64,000 nucleotides of DNA from assembly GCF_001563285.1 (NCBI RefSeq), contig NZ_CP005189.1, positions 62,001 to 126,000 of the forward strand. The letters run 5' to 3'. This document shows, piece by piece, positions 21,366 through 26,532 of this stretch (positions are counted from its first letter, which is position 1; the number at the start of each line of letters is the position of its first letter). The position numbers were made by a program, and so were the translations under genes. Below the pieces are notes generated by a model, which ran no database searches, had not been told where the DNA came from, and was given only the letters and a program-made list of their open reading frames with translations. Source of the DNA: Sphingobium sp. MI1205 (lineage in GTDB: Bacteria > Pseudomonadota > Alphaproteobacteria > Sphingomonadales > Sphingomonadaceae).

Positions 21366-23418
21366 TCGCTTCGAGGCCATCGAGACGCATGGGCTGGTAA
21401 GGCTGGCCGCCGCGACACCCGAAGCGAGCGTGGCCGATGTGGGCGCCAATGCAAAGGCGATCCTGCAACTCGCGCGGCAGGCTGCCGAAAAGGGGGCAGA
21501 CATCATCCTTTTCCCCGAACTTTGCCTGTCCTCCTACGCGATCGACGACCTGCATCTTCAGGATGCGCTGCTGGATAGGGTGGAAGCGGAGATAGGGCGG
21601 CTTGTCCACGCCAGCGCGGACTTGCCCGTGCTGCTGGTCGGCGCTCCGGTGCGGCGGAACGGGCGGCTGTATAATGCCGCGCTCGTGATCGCGGGCGGCA
21701 GGCTGCTGGGCGTGGTGCCGAAAAGCTATCTGCCCAATTATCGGGAATATTATGAAAAGCGCTGGTTTGCGCCGGGCGCTGGCCTGACCGGACTGGACAT
21801 CGACCTGGCTGGCTATCGCGCGCCCTTTGGCCCTGATTTGATCTTTGAGGCCGGGAATCGTGCGGACTTCATCTTTCATGTCGAAATTTGCGAGGATTAT
21901 TGGGCGCCGCTGCCCCCATCAACATTCGGTGCGCTGGCGGGGGCCTTGATCCTGTGCAATCTCTCGGCCTCCAACATTATCGTCGGAAAGGCGCGGGACC
22001 GGGATTTGCTGTCCGCCGCGCAATCGATGCGATGTATCGCTGCCTATGCCTATTCGGCGGCAGGGTACGGCGAAAGCACCACTGACATGGCCTGGGACGG
22101 GCAGGCGATGGTGCATGAGATGGGCGACATGCTGGCGCAATCGGCGCGCTTTGGCGATGCGCCGGAGATCATCTATGCCGATATCGATGCCCAGCGGCTG
22201 CGGTTGGAAAGGATGCGCAACGGCACCTTCAACGATACGGCCGAAGCGATGGGCCATCCAGAGCTGCGGTTTCGCCGCGTGACGTTCGAGGCGGCGGCCG
22301 TTGGGGACCGCGAAGGGCTTCATCGCCCGGTGCGCCGCTTCCCCTTTGTCCCGGCCGACCCCTTGCAGCTGGACGCGGACTGCTATGAAGCATTCAATAT
22401 CCAGGTGGAGGGGCAGGTCACCCGATTCCGCGCCACGGCGGGCAAGCATTTTGTCATTGGCGTGTCGGGCGGGCTCGATTCTACCCATGCGCTTATCGTC
22501 GCGGCCAAGGCGTGCGACCGGCTGGGCCTGCCGCGATCGGCGATCCTTGGCTATACGATGCCGGGCTTTGCCACGGGCGAACATACCAAAGCCAACGCCT
22601 GGCGCCTGATGAACGCCTTGGGGGTGAAGGGGGCGGAAATTGACATTCGGCCAGCCGCGCGGCAGATGCTTGCCGACATGGACCATCCCTTCGCCAAAGG
22701 GGAGGCGGTCTACGACGTCACCTTTGAAAATGTGCAGGCGGGACTGCGGACCGATTATCTGTTTCGCCTCGCTAATCGCAATGGCGGTTTTGTCGTCGGG
22801 ACGGGCGACCTTTCCGAACTGGCGCTAGGGTGGTGCACCTATGGCGTCGGCGATCATATGAGCCATTATGCCGTCAACAGTGGCGTACCCAAGACGCTGA
22901 TCCAATATCTGATCCGCTGGTGCATCGCGACGGACCAGTTCGATGCGGAGACGGACGCGATATTGCAGGCGATCGTGGATCAGGAAATATCGCCGGAATT
23001 GGTGCCTGCTGACGCCACCGGCGCGATGCAGAGTACGGAAAGCCGGGTCGGCCCGTACGCGCTGAACGACTTTTTCCTGCACCATATCGTCCGCTGGGGA
23101 CAGCCGCCGTCCAAGGTCGCATTCCTGGCCTGGCACGCCTGGCGCGATGTGGAGGCGGGAAGCTGGCCACCCGGCTATCCCGAGGGCGCAAAGCTGGCCT
23201 ACGACCTGCCCACCATCCGCCATTGGCTGGACAATTTCCTGTACCGCTTCTTCACCATCAGCCAGTTCAAGCGGTCGGCCATACCAAATGGGCCGAAGGT
23301 GTCGGGCGGCGGCGCGCTGTCGCCACGGGGAGACTGGCGTGCGCCTTCGGACGGGGGAGCGTCGGTCTGGCTGGACGAATTGTCCGACCGTTTGGGGTCC
23401 GTCGCAAAGAGTGAGTGA
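21355..23418 (+). CDS. nadE: Glutamine-dependent NAD+ synthase
   Basis: 687 residues with an N-terminal nitrilase-type glutaminase (about 20-300: catalytic Glu in ILFPELCLSSYAIDD, Lys in VPKSYLPNYREYYEKRWF, Cys in VEICEDYW) and a C-terminal ATP-pyrophosphatase synthetase domain with the P-loop VIGVSGGLDSTHALI. Ammonia released from glutamine amidates NaAD to NAD+. Overlaps pncC by 11 bases and has its own GGGAGG site. The pair closes the NMN -> NaMN -> NaAD -> NAD salvage route except for the adenylyltransferase, which is not in the window. Confidence 0.96.
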   Translation: MPVDRFEAIETHGLVRLAAATPEASVADVGANAKAILQLARQAAEKGADIILFPELCLSSYAIDDLHLQDALLDRVEAEIGRLVHASADLPVLLVGAPVRRNGRLYNAALVIAGGRLLGVVPKSYLPNYREYYEKRWFAPGAGLTGLDIDLAGYRAPFGPDLIFEAGNRADFIFHVEICEDYWAPLPPSTFGALAGALILCNLSASNIIVGKARDRDLLSAAQSMRCIAAYAYSAAGYGESTTDMAWDGQAMVHEMGDMLAQSARFGDAPEIIYADIDAQRLRLERMRNGTFNDTAEAMGHPELRFRRVTFEAAAVGDREGLHRPVRRFPFVPADPLQLDADCYEAFNIQVEGQVTRFRATAGKHFVIGVSGGLDSTHALIVAAKACDRLGLPRSAILGYTMPGFATGEHTKANAWRLMNALGVKGAEIDIRPAARQMLADMDHPFAKGEAVYDVTFENVQAGLRTDYLFRLANRNGGFVVGTGDLSELALGWCTYGVGDHMSHYAVNSGVPKTLIQYLIRWCIATDQFDAETDAILQAIVDQEISPELVPADATGAMQSTESRVGPYALNDFFLHHIVRWGQPPSKVAFLAWHAWRDVEAGSWPPGYPEGAKLAYDLPTIRHWLDNFLYRFFTISQFKRSAIPNGPKVSGGGALSPRGDWRAPSDGGASVWLDELSDRLGSVAKSE

Positions 23419-23475
23419 CTATAAGCTGGTCGCGGCCATGGTTACCAAATATGGACACATTATGCCCACAAATGA

Positions 23476-23504
23476 TTGACATGACGCAATAATCCGGTTA
23501 AACG
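23476..23504 (+). promoter_or_regulatory. Candidate promoter of the riboswitch transcript
   Basis: A consensus -35 hexamer TTGACA (23476-23481) is followed by 17 bases and a weak -10, TAAACG (23499-23504). A start near 23511 would give about 27 bases before the first riboswitch stem. Suggestive only, as the -10 is poor. Confidence 0.4.
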
Positions 23505-23537
23505 AGCGGTAAGGCAAAGAAGCGCGCCGCAGCGAGC

Positions 23538-23627
23538 TTCCTGGCCGAAAGGGCAAACTGTCGGTGACGGCAGGACGCAAAGCTTCCGGTCTCTTAGGTG
23601 GAGATAGCGGGGTTACCGAAGCAGGAA
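23538..23627 (+). ncRNA. Cyclic di-GMP-I (GEMM-I) riboswitch aptamer
   Basis: All the conserved GEMM-I parts occur in order: GGGCAAAC (23551-23558); the first hairpin CTGTCG-GTGA-CGGCAG (23558-23573) with a GNRA tetraloop; GACGCAAAGC (23574-23583); a second hairpin TCTC/GAGA (23590-23604); and TAGCGGGGTTACCG (23605-23618). A closing stem TTCCTG (23538-23543) with CAGGAA (23622-23627) buries an AGGA Shine-Dalgarno-like site, so ligand binding would be expected to block translation of the ATG at 23636. The downstream region holds no ordinary gene. Confidence 0.85.
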
Positions 23628-23635
23628 CATATGCG

Positions 23636-23710
23636 ATGAAAGCGCTTGGCCTTTTCTCTTCAGATATGGATTTTGGACCATCGGGTTGCGCAGGTCGCTC
23701 CCCGGGTTAA
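23636..23710 (+). CDS. Possible 24-residue ORF under the riboswitch
   Basis: The ATG lies nine bases after the AGGA that closes the riboswitch, good spacing for translation. Product MKALGLFSSDMDFGPSGCAG then RSPG, stop TAA. Three later dyads suggest that the RNA beyond is structured rather than coding: ATGCCG/CGGCAT near 23712, CGGCCA/TGGCCG near 23799, and CTCCC/GGGAG near 23826. The peptide may be a leader or the true target; I recognise no homologue. Confidence 0.3.
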   Translation: MKALGLFSSDMDFGPSGCAGRSPG

Positions 23711-23848
23711 TGCCGTTTTGGCTTTAGGCGGCATGGTGAGGCGGGGCCTGGACGAAGCCCTTACCCATGTTCGCAGGACATCGAATGTCAGCGTCGGCCA
23801 CATCGTTGGCCGCAACCTCTTTGCTCCCTCGGGTCGCACTCTGGGAGA

Positions 23849-23909
23849 GAAGCACAGCGTCCCAAAGACCTATCTCCCCACCACGGGGCGCTGTGCTTCA
23901 TTCTTTTTC
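23849..23909 (+). terminator. Intrinsic terminator of the riboswitch RNA
   Basis: GAAGCACAGCGTCCC (23849-23863) pairs with GGGGCGCTGTGCTTC (23885-23899) over 15 base pairs with one G-U, followed by ATTCTTTTTC. It ends a plus-strand transcript of about 390 bases that starts before the riboswitch. The 3' arm overlaps the stop codon of convergent glpD. Confidence 0.85.
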
Positions 23910-25469
23910 CTGTAACGACGTCGGCCGTGCTTCTGACGGATCGCGGATTGCGCCATCGAGATAGGCGGACAGCCGGTCAACCGCCTCAGGCGGGAGGTGG
24001 AGGCCCAGCTTGCTGCGGCGGAAGAGAATATCCTCCGCCGTGCGTGCCCATTCCTTGCTGACGAGATAATCGACCTCCGCCCGCGTCAGGTCGCCGCCGA
24101 ATGTCTCGCCCAGATCGTCGAGACCCTGCGCCCTGCCAAGCAGCTGTGGCGCCCGCGAGCCATAAGCGTGGGCGAGGCGGCGCAGCAAAGCGCCGGGCAG
24201 GGCGGGATATTGATCCCCCAGCCTGCTGACCAGCGCATCGATGTCGCCTTGCGGCATGTCTCCGCCGGGCAACTTTGATTCTCCTGTCCACGCGCCGCAG
24301 GTTTCGATGCCTTGCGAGGCGAGGAGATTGAGGGCCTGCTCGGCAAGCCTGCGGTAAGTGGTGATCTTGCCGCCGAATATGCTGAGCAGCGGGGGGCCGT
24401 CGCTATCCAGATCGAGGACGTAATCCCGTGTGACGGCAGAAGCCCGCCCGGCCTTGTCATCATGGAGCGGACGGATGCCCGCATAGGACCAGCGAATATC
24501 CTCCCGTGTAGGTGTACGCGCGAAATAGCGGCCCGCTGTGTCGAGCAGATAGCGGATCTCTGCATCGTCGATCTGCGCCTTTCCGGGCGGGCCGGTCCAG
24601 TCCTCCTCCGTCGTGCCGATCAGGGTGAAGCGCCCTTCATAGGGGATGGCAAAGACGATCCGGCGATCGGCATTTTGCAGCGTGAAGGCGTGATCGCCTT
24701 CATAGAGGCGCGGCACGACGATATGACTGCCTTTGACCAGGCGAACGGCCCGCTCGCTGTGAAGGCCCGCTCTGCCGATGACATCGCTTACCCACGGTCC
24801 GGCTGCGTTGACGAGTATGCGGGCGCGGACTTCCTGCTCGCCCCTGGCATCGGCGATCCTGGCGCGCCAGAACGCGCCCTCGCGACGCGCGTGCAACAGA
24901 CGGGTGCGGGTACGGACGAGCGCGCCACGTTCGGCAGCGTCGAGCGCGTTCAGGACGACCAGCCGACTGTCATCCACCCAGCAATCCGAATAGAGGAATG
25001 CGCGGCCCCGGCGGTCGGCCAGCCCGTCGCCGAAGGGAGAGCGATCCAGCGCCACTGTCCGGGTGGCGGGCAGCGCCTTGCGTCCGCCCAGATGATCGTA
25101 AAGGAAAAGGCCGAGCCGAACCATCCATGCGGGGCGCGGAGAGAGGGTCTGAGGCAACAGGAAACTGAGCGGCCAGATGATGTGCGGCGCCATGCGCCAC
25201 AGCCGTTCCCGTTCGATCAGGGACTCGCGCACCAGGCTGAACTCGCCATACTCAAGATAACGCAGTCCGCCATGGATCAGCTTGGTCGATGCGGACGATG
25301 TGTGGCCGGCAAGGTCATCCTGCTCGACGAGCAATAGTCTGTAACCCCGTCCGGCGGCGTCGCGGGCGATGCCGGCGCCATTGACGCCCCCGCCCACGAC
25401 CAGCATGTCCAAGTCAGCCGGGGGGCCTTCATCCTTTTCATCAAGCCTCGGCCCCGACAGGTTTTTCAT
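23898..25469 (-). CDS. glpD: Glycerol-3-phosphate dehydrogenase (FAD)
   Basis: 523 residues. Peripheral inner-membrane flavoprotein that oxidises sn-glycerol-3-phosphate to dihydroxyacetone phosphate and passes electrons to ubiquinone. N-terminal FAD-binding DMLVVGGGVNGAGIARDAAG, then STKLIHGGLRYLEYGEF and the C-terminal VDYLVSKEWARTAEDILFRR-type lid. The start MKNLSGPRLDEK precedes the Rossmann fold by 20 residues; the longer frame to 25679 would add unrelated sequence. glpF and glpK are not near. Confidence 0.95.
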   Translation of the reverse strand: MKNLSGPRLDEKDEGPPADLDMLVVGGGVNGAGIARDAAGRGYRLLLVEQDDLAGHTSSASTKLIHGGLRYLEYGEFSLVRESLIERERLWRMAPHIIWPLSFLLPQTLSPRPAWMVRLGLFLYDHLGGRKALPATRTVALDRSPFGDGLADRRGRAFLYSDCWVDDSRLVVLNALDAAERGALVRTRTRLLHARREGAFWRARIADARGEQEVRARILVNAAGPWVSDVIGRAGLHSERAVRLVKGSHIVVPRLYEGDHAFTLQNADRRIVFAIPYEGRFTLIGTTEEDWTGPPGKAQIDDAEIRYLLDTAGRYFARTPTREDIRWSYAGIRPLHDDKAGRASAVTRDYVLDLDSDGPPLLSIFGGKITTYRRLAEQALNLLASQGIETCGAWTGESKLPGGDMPQGDIDALVSRLGDQYPALPGALLRRLAHAYGSRAPQLLGRAQGLDDLGETFGGDLTRAEVDYLVSKEWARTAEDILFRRSKLGLHLPPEAVDRLSAYLDGAIRDPSEARPTSLQEKE

Positions 25470-25572
25470 GACAAACCATATTATCGCATAATTGGCCGAG
25501 CGATATAGCGGCCACCATATCCGGATCGGTCTTGGCTCTCGGATGTTAGCTCTCATGCAGAAGGGAGTGAGC

Positions 25573-26532
25573 ATGGCAGCACAGGACACCGATAGGGGCC
25601 GATCAGCGCAACGGCCGCGGGATATGCCGAAGGCGGCGTGGCGCGACATATTGCTACGGACCTGGAATGAAAGCAGCACCGATAATGTCGGCCTGGTTTC
25701 CGCCGGAGTTGCCTTTTATGGTTTCCTCGCCTTCGTGCCGACATTGGCTGCGCTCGTCCTCTGTTATGGGCTGCTGGCCGATCCATCGACGATCGCCGAT
25801 CATCTGCGGTCGTTGTTCCAACTGCTGCCGGAAGAAGCCGCCCGGCTTATCGGTGAACAGTTGCTGTCCGTCATCAACACAAGCGCCGACAAGAAGGGCT
25901 TTGGCCTGCTCGTGTCCCTCACCCTGTCCATCTATGGGGCGATGAACGGCGCCAGCGCGATCGTGAAGGCGGTAAACATCGCCTATGACGAAGAAGAAAG
26001 CCGCAGCTTCATCAGGCTGACGGCGCTGGCCTGTCTGATCACCATTGGCCTGTTGGTCACGGCTGTTATCGCGATTTTCGCCATTGCAGCGCTCGCATTT
26101 ATGGAACAGCTGATGCCGGGCGCGCCGGGCATCGTGACGACGGCAATCCGCATCGGCTTCTGGCTGTTGGCCGCACTTGCCGCCAGCATGATCGTCAGCA
26201 TGGTCTACCGCTACGCTCCCGACCGGCATCGCGCGCAATGGCGATGGCTGACGCCGGGATCGGTGTTGGCGACGGTGGGCTGGCTAGCGGTGAGTCTTGG
26301 ATTTGGCGTCTATGCGTCGCATTTCGGTAACTATGGCGCGACCTATGGGGCGTTGAGCGCCGTAGTCGTCACGCTGATGTGGCTGTATCTGTCGGCCTAT
26401 ATTCTGGTTCTGGGCGCGGAACTGAACAGCGAGATCGAGCATCAAACCGCGGAGGATACAACCATCGGCCGGCCAAAGCCGATGGGCGAGCGCCGTGCCT
26501 ATGTCGCCGATACCATTGGAGCCGTGCCATAA
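25573..26532 (+). CDS. YihY/virulence factor BrkB family membrane protein
   Basis: 319 residues with about six hydrophobic segments. The family core SAGVAFYGFLAFVPTLAALV, with the following INIAYDEEE loop, and the later GSVLATVGWLAVSLGFGVYA and YNYGATYGALSAV-like stretch are typical. Located in the inner membrane; the function of the family is not settled. The start at MAAQDTD follows AGAAGGGAGTGAGC and is preferred to the upstream ATG. The gene is divergent from glpD. Confidence 0.88.
   Translation: MAAQDTDRGRSAQRPRDMPKAAWRDILLRTWNESSTDNVGLVSAGVAFYGFLAFVPTLAALVLCYGLLADPSTIADHLRSLFQLLPEEAARLIGEQLLSVINTSADKKGFGLLVSLTLSIYGAMNGASAIVKAVNIAYDEEESRSFIRLTALACLITIGLLVTAVIAIFAIAALAFMEQLMPGAPGIVTTAIRIGFWLLAALAASMIVSMVYRYAPDRHRAQWRWLTPGSVLATVGWLAVSLGFGVYASHFGNYGATYGALSAVVVTLMWLYLSAYILVLGAELNSEIEHQTAEDTTIGRPKPMGERRAYVADTIGAVP

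What the first reader, a model, noticed from the sequence alone, without database searches (positions are those of the whole stretch)
23476..23909. Orphan c-di-GMP-I riboswitch controlling an unassigned 390-base transcript
A near-textbook GEMM-I aptamer (23538-23627) lies after nadE, is preceded by TTGACA, and is followed by a 15-bp intrinsic terminator (23849-23909). There is no ordinary gene between them, only a 24-codon ORF at 23636 whose ribosome site AGGA is built into the closing stem (TTCCTG with CAGGAA). The rest of the transcript has three or more dyads. This is a candidate c-di-GMP-regulated micropeptide or a c-di-GMP-gated small RNA.
Basis: partly seen in the sequence, partly recalled or inferred. 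Interest (0 to 1): 0.82.

Follow-up and report, generated by a model that had tools for sequence, protein, structure and literature searches.

The report
Free-standing c-di-GMP riboswitch small RNA
Between two ordinary genes this Sphingobium genome carries what looks like a small RNA gene of about 400 bases that begins with a sensor for the signal molecule c-di-GMP, contains a very short reading frame and ends in a very well conserved pair of hairpins; related species keep it beside different neighbours, so it looks like a working RNA of its own and not a switch that has lost its gene.

Summary
Rfam finds a c-di-GMP-I aptamer at 23543-23621 (RF03167, 60.4 bits; RF01051, 64.4 bits), the only match found in this genome. 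The 24-codon ORF, its ribosome site inside the closing stem, and the 15-pair terminal stem are there. The whole unit (promoter, aptamer, short ORF, spacer, two-hairpin 3' module) recurs in 7 of 94 genomes of the genus and in 12 Sphingobium plasmid records, beside different neighbours; in 16 loci compared I found no ordinary gene between aptamer and terminal hairpin. The 40-base core of the 3' module is 96-97% identical between groups whose spacers are 27-37% identical. So it is very probably a selected, free-standing RNA gene. The ORF has 24 codons in 13 of 16 loci, with three different stop codons, but evidence for selection on the peptide is weak. Hairpins with the same loop and different, complementary stems also lie before terminator-like hairpins at other sphingomonad genes. 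Best reading: a c-di-GMP-gated small RNA whose ligand hides the ribosome site; how the 3' module acts is unknown. Transcription and ligand binding are untested.

The parts
23476..23503 (+). Putative promoter: -35 TTGACA 23476-23481, -10 region GGTTAAAC 23496-23503
   Evidence: TTGAC and a [TC]TAA core at constant spacing in 14 of 14 distinct copies. The E. coli-type consensus scan found no promoter; the fit to an alphaproteobacterial housekeeping consensus is recalled, not tested.
23509..23537 (+). 5' leader (transcript start inferred)
   Evidence: 81% identity between the nadE and glpD groups, 61% to the two distant copies (region 23507-23537); no function shown
23538..23543 (+). 5' strand of lower P1 stem (TTCCTG)
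   Evidence: Pairs with 23622-23627; 84.6% of cells paired over 13 copies, two pairs with changes on both sides, one of which is unpaired in 9 of 13
23543..23621 (+). c-di-GMP-I aptamer (RF03167 / RF01051)
   Evidence: whole structure with P1 95.3% of 338 cells paired over 13 copies
23622..23627 (+). 3' strand of lower P1 = CAGGAA, holding the putative ribosome site AGGA
23631..23639 (+). Two-codon ATG CGA TGA overlapping the start of the short ORF (ATGA overlap)
   Evidence: sequence; present in 4 of 14 distinct copies
23636..23710 (+). 24-codon ORF MKALGLFSSDMDFGPSGCAGRSPG*
   Evidence: 24 codons in 13 of 16 loci with TAA, TAG or TGA as stop; weak codon-level signal
23711..23823 (+). Unconserved spacer
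   Evidence: 37% identity nadE vs glpD group, 27% to the distant copies
23824..23847 (+). Hairpin A: CTCCC - 14-base loop TCGGGTCGCACTNT - GGGAG
   Evidence: One variable loop base in 14 distinct copies; stem changes on both sides among unlinked copies
23849..23899 (+). Hairpin B: terminal 15-pair stem; its 3' end overlaps the stop end of the convergent glpD ORF (23898-25679 -)
   Evidence: 99% of cells paired over 7 copies
23900..23908 (+). T-rich tail, present here and in 2 of 13 other distinct copies

Best explanation
It is a free-standing RNA gene of about 400 bases, conserved in part of the genus Sphingobium, that reads c-di-GMP and is not the leader of an ordinary protein gene. Proposed working: transcription starts near 23510; c-di-GMP binding closes P1, which hides the ribosome site AGGA and shuts off translation of the 24-codon ORF; with or without ribosomes on its 5' half the RNA is made or survives at different levels; its 3' module (constant-loop hairpin A plus stem B) is the effector end or a 3'-end handle, recognised by an unknown protein or RNA. 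Shown: the anatomy, its conservation, its independence of any fixed neighbour. Supported by sequence: ribosome site inside P1. Inferred: transcription, ligand binding, direction of control, effect on RNA level, any trans role.
For: Aptamer above cut-off in the window and in 12 of 12 further copies scanned. Whole unit in 7 of 94 genus genomes (each of the 7 strong 3'-module matches lies behind an aptamer) and in 12 of 72,556 plasmid records, all Sphingobium (9 of the 12 fetched and checked). Different neighbours (nadE, enoyl-CoA hydratase, an RND-like protein or a Tad-like region on one side; glpD, LysR, adhC or an isomerase-like gene on the other) with the same unit between. Identity by region, main copies vs the two most distant: aptamer 82%, 3' core 96%, spacer 27%. 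Aptamer plus P1: cells paired above all but 3 of 500 shuffles, cells changed on both sides above all but 2 of 500. Predicted fold of the window: ribosome-site bases unpaired 0.41 free, 0.01 with the aptamer pairs enforced. Hairpin A: 3 cells changed on both sides across unlinked copies.
Against: No transcript, binding or expression data. The number of P1/aptamer pairs with both-side changes is no more than shuffles give (130 of 500 reach it). The ribosome-site switch is clear by folding in 3 of 14 copies (L007, L013, L112), small in most others, and reversed in L170 and L172. Folding gives no consistent link from aptamer to 3' module: stem B is at 0.92 or more in both states in 14 of 14, and hairpin A changes only in L113 (0.71 to 0.37) and L109 (0.56 to 0.98); in the window hairpin A itself is only at about 0.5. 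No terminator-like site lies between aptamer and 3' module in the window. No base-pairing target was found: the exact 11-base complement of the loop is at control frequency. L116 has an open frame of 182 codons starting in the spacer and running through the 3' module; the related record L167 annotates nothing there. The 3' module or its hairpin also sits at the ends of protein genes, so it may be a general 3'-end device and not an effector.
Confidence: 0.45

Rival explanations
1. It is a c-di-GMP-controlled micropeptide gene: the product is the 24-residue peptide, and the 3' module only ends and protects the mRNA.
For: Ribosome site, ATG and a stop after 24 codons kept in 13 of 16 loci with three different stop codons (in L170 the stop comes from an insertion); an amino-acid score reached by only 36 of 2000 column shuffles in the nadE group.
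Against: L171 and L109 are frameshifted and L013 has 27 codons. No clear signal in the glpD group (185 of 2000; no third-position excess) and 121 of 2000 over all ten ORFs tested. The 3' core, far from the ORF, is much better conserved than codons 11-24 (96% vs 32%, main vs distant copies).
Confidence: 0.2
2. Leader-peptide variant: only the act of translating the short ORF matters, because it decides whether RNA polymerase (through Rho) or RNase reaches the 3' module; the peptide itself is irrelevant.
For: Start signals kept while the peptide drifts. A start codon right behind the aptamer is common in other sphingomonad c-di-GMP-I loci: ATG 8-16 bases behind it in 15 of 33 non-element loci with a recognisable core, GTG in 9, none in 9.
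Against: In 2 of the 15 (L004, L014) that ATG starts a 186-codon CAP-type gene and not a short leader. Many of the 33 loci are related, so they are not independent. Rho sites and RNA decay were not tested.
Confidence: 0.15
3. c-di-GMP sponge or reservoir, as proposed for merRNA of Bdellovibrio: the aptamer soaks up the ligand.
For: A 445-base c-di-GMP-riboswitch RNA without a conserved ORF is described there (PMC3627812, passages); size and lack of an ordinary gene are similar.
Against: Does not explain the highly conserved 3' core or the kept ribosome site and ORF. Needs very high expression, untested.
Confidence: 0.08
4. Antisense-acting riboswitch on the convergent gene (glpD here).
For: Element and glpD converge and overlap by a few bases; antisense-acting c-di-GMP-I riboswitches have been proposed (PMC9943018, passages).
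Against: The convergent gene is LysR in L116 and L167, and in L112, L013 and L109 the gene that I could name behind the unit lies on the same strand, while the unit stays the same.
Confidence: 0.05
5. Remnant: a surface-gene riboswitch leader that lost its gene.
For: Other c-di-GMP-I loci of the family precede an annotated autotransporter, DUF4402 or CAP-domain genes.
Against: Promoter core, aptamer and 3' core are held while the spacer has lost similarity, in 14 distinct copies beside several kinds of neighbour; no ordinary downstream gene found in 16 loci.
Confidence: 0.03

Closest known systems
c-di-GMP-I riboswitch (GEMM-I; RF01051, variant model RF03167)
   Same: Aptamer sequence and structure, above both cut-offs; ribosome site in the closing stem.
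   Different: No ordinary gene found between aptamer and terminal hairpin in 16 loci; ends in a conserved two-hairpin module instead.
merRNA of Bdellovibrio bacteriovorus (PMC3627812, passages seen)
   Same: Free-standing RNA of about 400-450 bases with a c-di-GMP riboswitch and no ordinary gene.
   Different: Here there is a short ORF with kept start signals and a highly conserved 3' core; the paper reports no conserved ORF. Sequences were not compared.
EutX / Rli55 (PMC7602753, passages seen)
   Same: A riboswitch in front of a small RNA body that carries a recognition structure also found in mRNAs.
   Different: There the ligand is vitamin B12 and causes premature termination before the RNA body, and the titrated regulator is known; here the scan shows no such terminator and the partner is unknown.
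Dual-function small RNAs such as SgrS (recalled)
   Same: A short ORF and a separate conserved non-coding part on one RNA.
   Different: No base-pairing target shown; peptide selection weak; headed by an aptamer.

Membership tests
c-di-GMP-I riboswitch | Covariance score above the curated cut-off | tested here: met
   60.4 bits vs 59 (RF03167), 64.4 vs 35 (RF01051)
c-di-GMP-I riboswitch | P1, P2, P3 helices kept across relatives | tested here: met
   95.3% of 338 cells paired over 13 copies
c-di-GMP-I riboswitch | Binds c-di-GMP (and not cGAMP) | not testable with these tools
   Core bases look like those of the Vibrio Vc2 aptamer, but that comparison is recalled
c-di-GMP-I riboswitch | Controls an adjacent ordinary protein gene in cis | tested here: not met
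   None found between aptamer and terminal hairpin in 16 loci; the unannotated 182-codon frame of L116 is the one doubtful case
merRNA-type riboswitch RNA | c-di-GMP aptamer in an RNA with no conserved ORF | tested here: inconclusive
   No ordinary gene, but a short ORF kept at 24 codons in 13 of 16 loci
merRNA-type riboswitch RNA | Massive expression | not testable with these tools
   no expression data
EutX/Rli55-type riboswitch-gated small RNA | Ligand-controlled terminator before the RNA body | tested here: inconclusive
   Consensus scan of window 23300-24300 finds terminator-like sites only at the terminal stem; other copies and Rho-dependent sites were not tested
EutX/Rli55-type riboswitch-gated small RNA | Recognition structure shared with mRNAs | tested here: inconclusive
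   Constant-loop hairpin at several 3' ends, but no binding partner known
Dual-function sRNA | Translated short ORF under selection | tested here: inconclusive
Dual-function sRNA | Conserved base-pairing target | tested here: inconclusive
   Exact 11-base complement of the loop at control frequency in 7 genomes; shorter, interrupted or G-U pairing was not tried

The most novel reading that the evidence does not exclude
The RNA is a c-di-GMP-gated decoy: its constant-loop hairpin competes for a still unknown RNA-binding factor that also recognises the same hairpin at the 3' ends of mRNAs such as those of a cell-wall hydrolase (PF07486) and an OmpA-domain (Pal-type) protein, so that c-di-GMP tunes envelope genes in trans. 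It would be a trans-acting output for c-di-GMP riboswitches together with a new 3'-end RNA motif of sphingomonads.
Probability: 0.1. Interest if true: 0.85.

Novelty: new variant of a known kind. Interest (0 to 1): 0.6.

Why it matters
c-di-GMP riboswitches are usually read as local switches for the next gene. A small, conserved RNA gene that carries the sensor on its own would give the signal a trans-acting or peptide output, and this can be tested in one strain. The constant-loop hairpin next to terminator-like stems, for which no Rfam match was found in the loci scanned, is a separate lead to an RNA-binding factor in sphingomonads.

Tried and rejected
Lost-gene remnant: rejected as main reading by the pattern of conservation and by the lack of an ordinary gene in 16 loci. 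Phage element: no match in 50,697 phage records and none to one exact 31-base pattern in the viral contigs. It does sit on large plasmids: of the 12 records 11 are typed non-mobilizable and 1 conjugative. Scattered repeat: in the own genome CGGGTCGCACY occurs 13 times against 27 for the reversed control, most of them inside open frames by a crude test, so the hairpin is rare. Base-pairing target: the exact 11-base complement of the loop gave 37 hits in 7 genomes, 7 of them the element itself, against 29 for the control; 30 of the 37 were fetched and 29 read; hits shared between genomes were the element, two further hairpins of the same kind, or stretches that look coding. Leader pairing with the ORF (AAGCG with CGCTT): seen by eye, not kept in the two distant copies, dropped. 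A coding reading of the 40-base core (its one variable base is a third codon position in ORF 23767-23964): not pursued, because the upstream part of that frame is spacer. The aptamer-like match in L240 from a loose text search was not confirmed by Rfam. The peptide was not searched in the protein database; 24 residues lie below usual gene-calling limits (recalled).

First covariance model R1 had a mis-registered structure and was not used; R2 replaced it. The first pair count used a wrong register and alignments A1 and A2 had wrong or uneven ends; they were repeated. Model R3 found only the unit and two doubtful places in the own genome and missed the hydrolase copy. The covariation count leans towards the structure, because four of its nine rows (L125, L126, L137, L138) had been found with R2, which contains that stem. 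A scan of the genome collection with a 21-base aptamer piece gave 69 stretches, none of whose titles names a sphingomonad; they were not used.

Not found in print: searches for c-di-GMP riboswitch with Sphingomonas and small RNA, with Sphingobium, for Sphingobium with sRNA and riboswitch, and for the loop letters listed no paper on this RNA; the library holds open-licence papers only. PMC11218506 (abstract and outline) is about a c-di-GMP riboswitch with a long expression platform before genes, not a free-standing RNA.

Full report
CHECK OF THE OBSERVATION. Rfam places a c-di-GMP-I aptamer at 23543-23621 on the + strand: RF03167 with 60.4 bits against a cut-off of 59, E 9e-12 for the whole window. 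The parent model RF01051 gives 64.4 bits against 35. Which of the two models wins changes from copy to copy, so I do not read meaning into the variant name. In the own genome it is the only match found with RF03167 and with RF01051 (stricter filters). The RNA 23510-23915 does not fold better than shuffles (z -0.72), so the 'further dyads' carry no weight by themselves.

THE UNIT IS CONSERVED. A search of 94 genomes of the genus with 23780-23915 gives 11 matches in 10 genomes: seven strong (E 1.9e-11 or better) and four weak, in G351, G299, G302 and G350. The seven strong ones all lie behind an RF01051 match, with 246-260 bases between aptamer core and hairpin loop. A covariance model of the 3' end finds the same seven at 87 bits or more. 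RF01051 itself matches in 23 of 94 genomes at 30 places, so most aptamers in the genus are not part of this unit. Plasmid records name the genus: 12 Sphingobium records hold the unit, among them S. herbicidovorans MH pMSHV, and a 13th holds only an aptamer, before an autotransporter gene. The PLSDB gene table, which is incomplete, lists no feature for the unit in the 12 records; where a feature overlaps, it is the end of glpD.

NEIGHBOURS CHANGE, THE UNIT STAYS. Seen so far: nadE and glpD (window, L111/L166), nadE and LysR (L116, L167), nadE and adhC (L112), enoyl-CoA hydratase and glpD (L113, L168-L172, L174, L175), an RND-type protein and an isomerase-like gene (L013), a Tad-like pilus region and the same isomerase-like gene (L109) (names of the unannotated ones are my reading of the translations). 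In 16 loci I found no ordinary gene between aptamer and terminal hairpin; the doubtful case is L116, where an open frame of 182 codons starts in the spacer and runs through the 3' module, without annotation in its relative L167. Mean identity between the nadE and glpD groups is 88% in the aptamer, 37% in the spacer and 97% in the 40 bases CTCCC...TCCC; between these and the two distant copies it is 82%, 27% and 96%. A drifting remnant would not look like this.

THE SHORT ORF. It has 24 codons in 13 of 16 loci, with TAA, TAG or TGA at the end; L013 has 27 codons; L171 and L109 are frameshifted. Shuffling alignment columns gives an amino-acid score as high as observed in 36 of 2000 cases for the five nadE-type ORFs, 121 of 2000 for all ten distinct intact ORFs and 185 of 2000 for the five glpD-type ORFs; differences at codon positions 1 to 3 are 325, 262 and 343 over all pairs. 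So translation is plausible, selection on the peptide is uncertain. The ribosome site lies in the lower P1 stem: of its six pairs three never vary, one varies on one side, two have changes on both sides, and one of these two is unpaired in 9 of 13 copies. Enforcing the aptamer fold takes the ribosome-site bases from 0.41 to 0.01 unpaired in the window, from 0.56 to 0.13 in L013 and from 0.57 to 0.24 in L112; in the other 11 copies the change is small, and in L170 and L172 it goes the other way.

A COMMON PLATFORM. In 33 other sphingomonad c-di-GMP-I loci with a recognisable core (of 41 loci looked at, 7 are the unit and 1 had no core), an ATG follows 8-16 bases behind the aptamer in 15, a GTG in 9, neither in 9; simple arithmetic gives about one in five for ATG by chance, and the loci are partly related. 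In L004 and L014 that ATG starts the main gene. The gene behind the aptamer is an annotated autotransporter in L173, 230 bases on, a DUF4402 protein in L117 and L098 and a CAP-domain protein in L004; six of ten proteins tested matched no Pfam family and L006 matched an autotransporter repeat below its cut-off. The unit described here may be this kind of leader with its gene replaced by the 3' module; that is inference.

THE 3' MODULE. Hairpin A (23824-23847) has a 14-base loop in which one base varies over 14 distinct copies; stem B (23849-23899) is 99% paired over seven copies. Stem B is followed by a T-rich tail in only 3 of 14 distinct copies, so calling it a canonical intrinsic terminator holds for the window but not for most relatives. 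The model finds weaker relatives in which no aptamer was found: L137 and L138 in the genus (48 and 46 bits), L125 and L139 (45 and 37 bits), L126 behind a sigma-70-type factor that I read as RpoH, and others. Loop matches found without any stem requirement add the 3' ends of a cell-wall hydrolase gene in five genomes and of an OmpA-domain gene in three (Pfam on one member each); in two of the five hydrolase copies (L187, L190) the predicted fold does not show the hairpin. The stems differ and stay complementary: CTCCC/GGGAG, TTCCC/GGGAA, TTCC/GGAA, CGGCC/GGCCG, CCCC/GGGG, AAGCC/GGCTT, GCCC/GGGC. On nine copies of one geometry three cells have both sides changed, a value that 2 of 500 shuffles reach; the number of such pairs (2) is reached by 32 of 500, and four of the nine rows were found with a model that contains the stem. 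A strict pattern search of 298 family genomes finds 7 matches, two of them the unit itself and one (L160) inside a coding frame, against 1 for the reversed pattern. None of 15 loci with such hairpins has an Rfam match. A constant loop on changing stems speaks for recognition by a trans factor; which one is unknown.

MECHANISM. Shown: anatomy, conservation, independence of a fixed neighbour. Supported: ribosome site in P1. Inferred: c-di-GMP binding, less translation when bound, and an effect on RNA level. In these predictions stem B forms in both states in all 14 copies, and hairpin A changes with the aptamer in only two (L113, L109, in opposite directions), so a direct structural switch of the 3' module is not supported; control of amount or pure co-carriage remain. 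The known things nearest to it are merRNA, a free-standing c-di-GMP riboswitch RNA proposed as a reservoir (PMC3627812, passages; also named in one passage of PMC11323537), and EutX/Rli55, riboswitch-gated RNAs that titrate a regulator (PMC7602753, passages). The unit shares traits with each and is shown to be a member of neither.

VERDICT. A conserved, free-standing c-di-GMP-I RNA gene by all sequence evidence here: a new variant of a known kind. Its output is open; a gated small RNA with a probably translated but loosely constrained short ORF is the best single reading.

Noticed in passing
L179, L195, L182, L194, L200, L137, L138, L125, L126, L128, L142, L143, L239, L240, L241 (near the middle of each locus): Hairpin with the constant loop core GGGTCGCAC and different complementary stems just before a terminator-like hairpin, in several cases shortly behind stop codons (cell-wall hydrolase, OmpA-domain protein, sigma-70-type factor, glycine-zipper protein); no Rfam match in the loci scanned.
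   Followed up: partly
L002-L015, L096-L121, L173: Sphingomonad c-di-GMP-I riboswitches often have a start codon directly behind the aptamer (ATG in 15 of 33), with an autotransporter, DUF4402 or CAP-type gene behind it where a family could be named.
   Followed up: partly
L170, within the unit, at the stop of the short ORF: Sphingobium sp. TomTYG46 carries an insertion of about 103 bases at the stop codon of the short ORF, which still leaves the ORF at 24 codons.
   Followed up: no
window 23631-23639: A two-codon ATG CGA TGA overlaps the start of the 24-codon ORF (ATGA overlap); present in 4 of 14 distinct copies.
   Followed up: no
window 23824-23863: The one variable base in hairpin A's loop is a third (fourfold) codon position in the frame of ORF 23767-23964; probably coincidence, since the upstream part of that frame is unconserved spacer.
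   Followed up: no
L137 and L138, about 780-2160: An intergenic region of about 1.4 kb holding the 3' module but no Rfam aptamer, in two genomes that have separate c-di-GMP-I loci: a candidate second small RNA.
   Followed up: no
L116 1694-2242: An unannotated open frame of 182 codons starts in the spacer of the unit and runs through the 3' module; not checked in the other copies.
   Followed up: no
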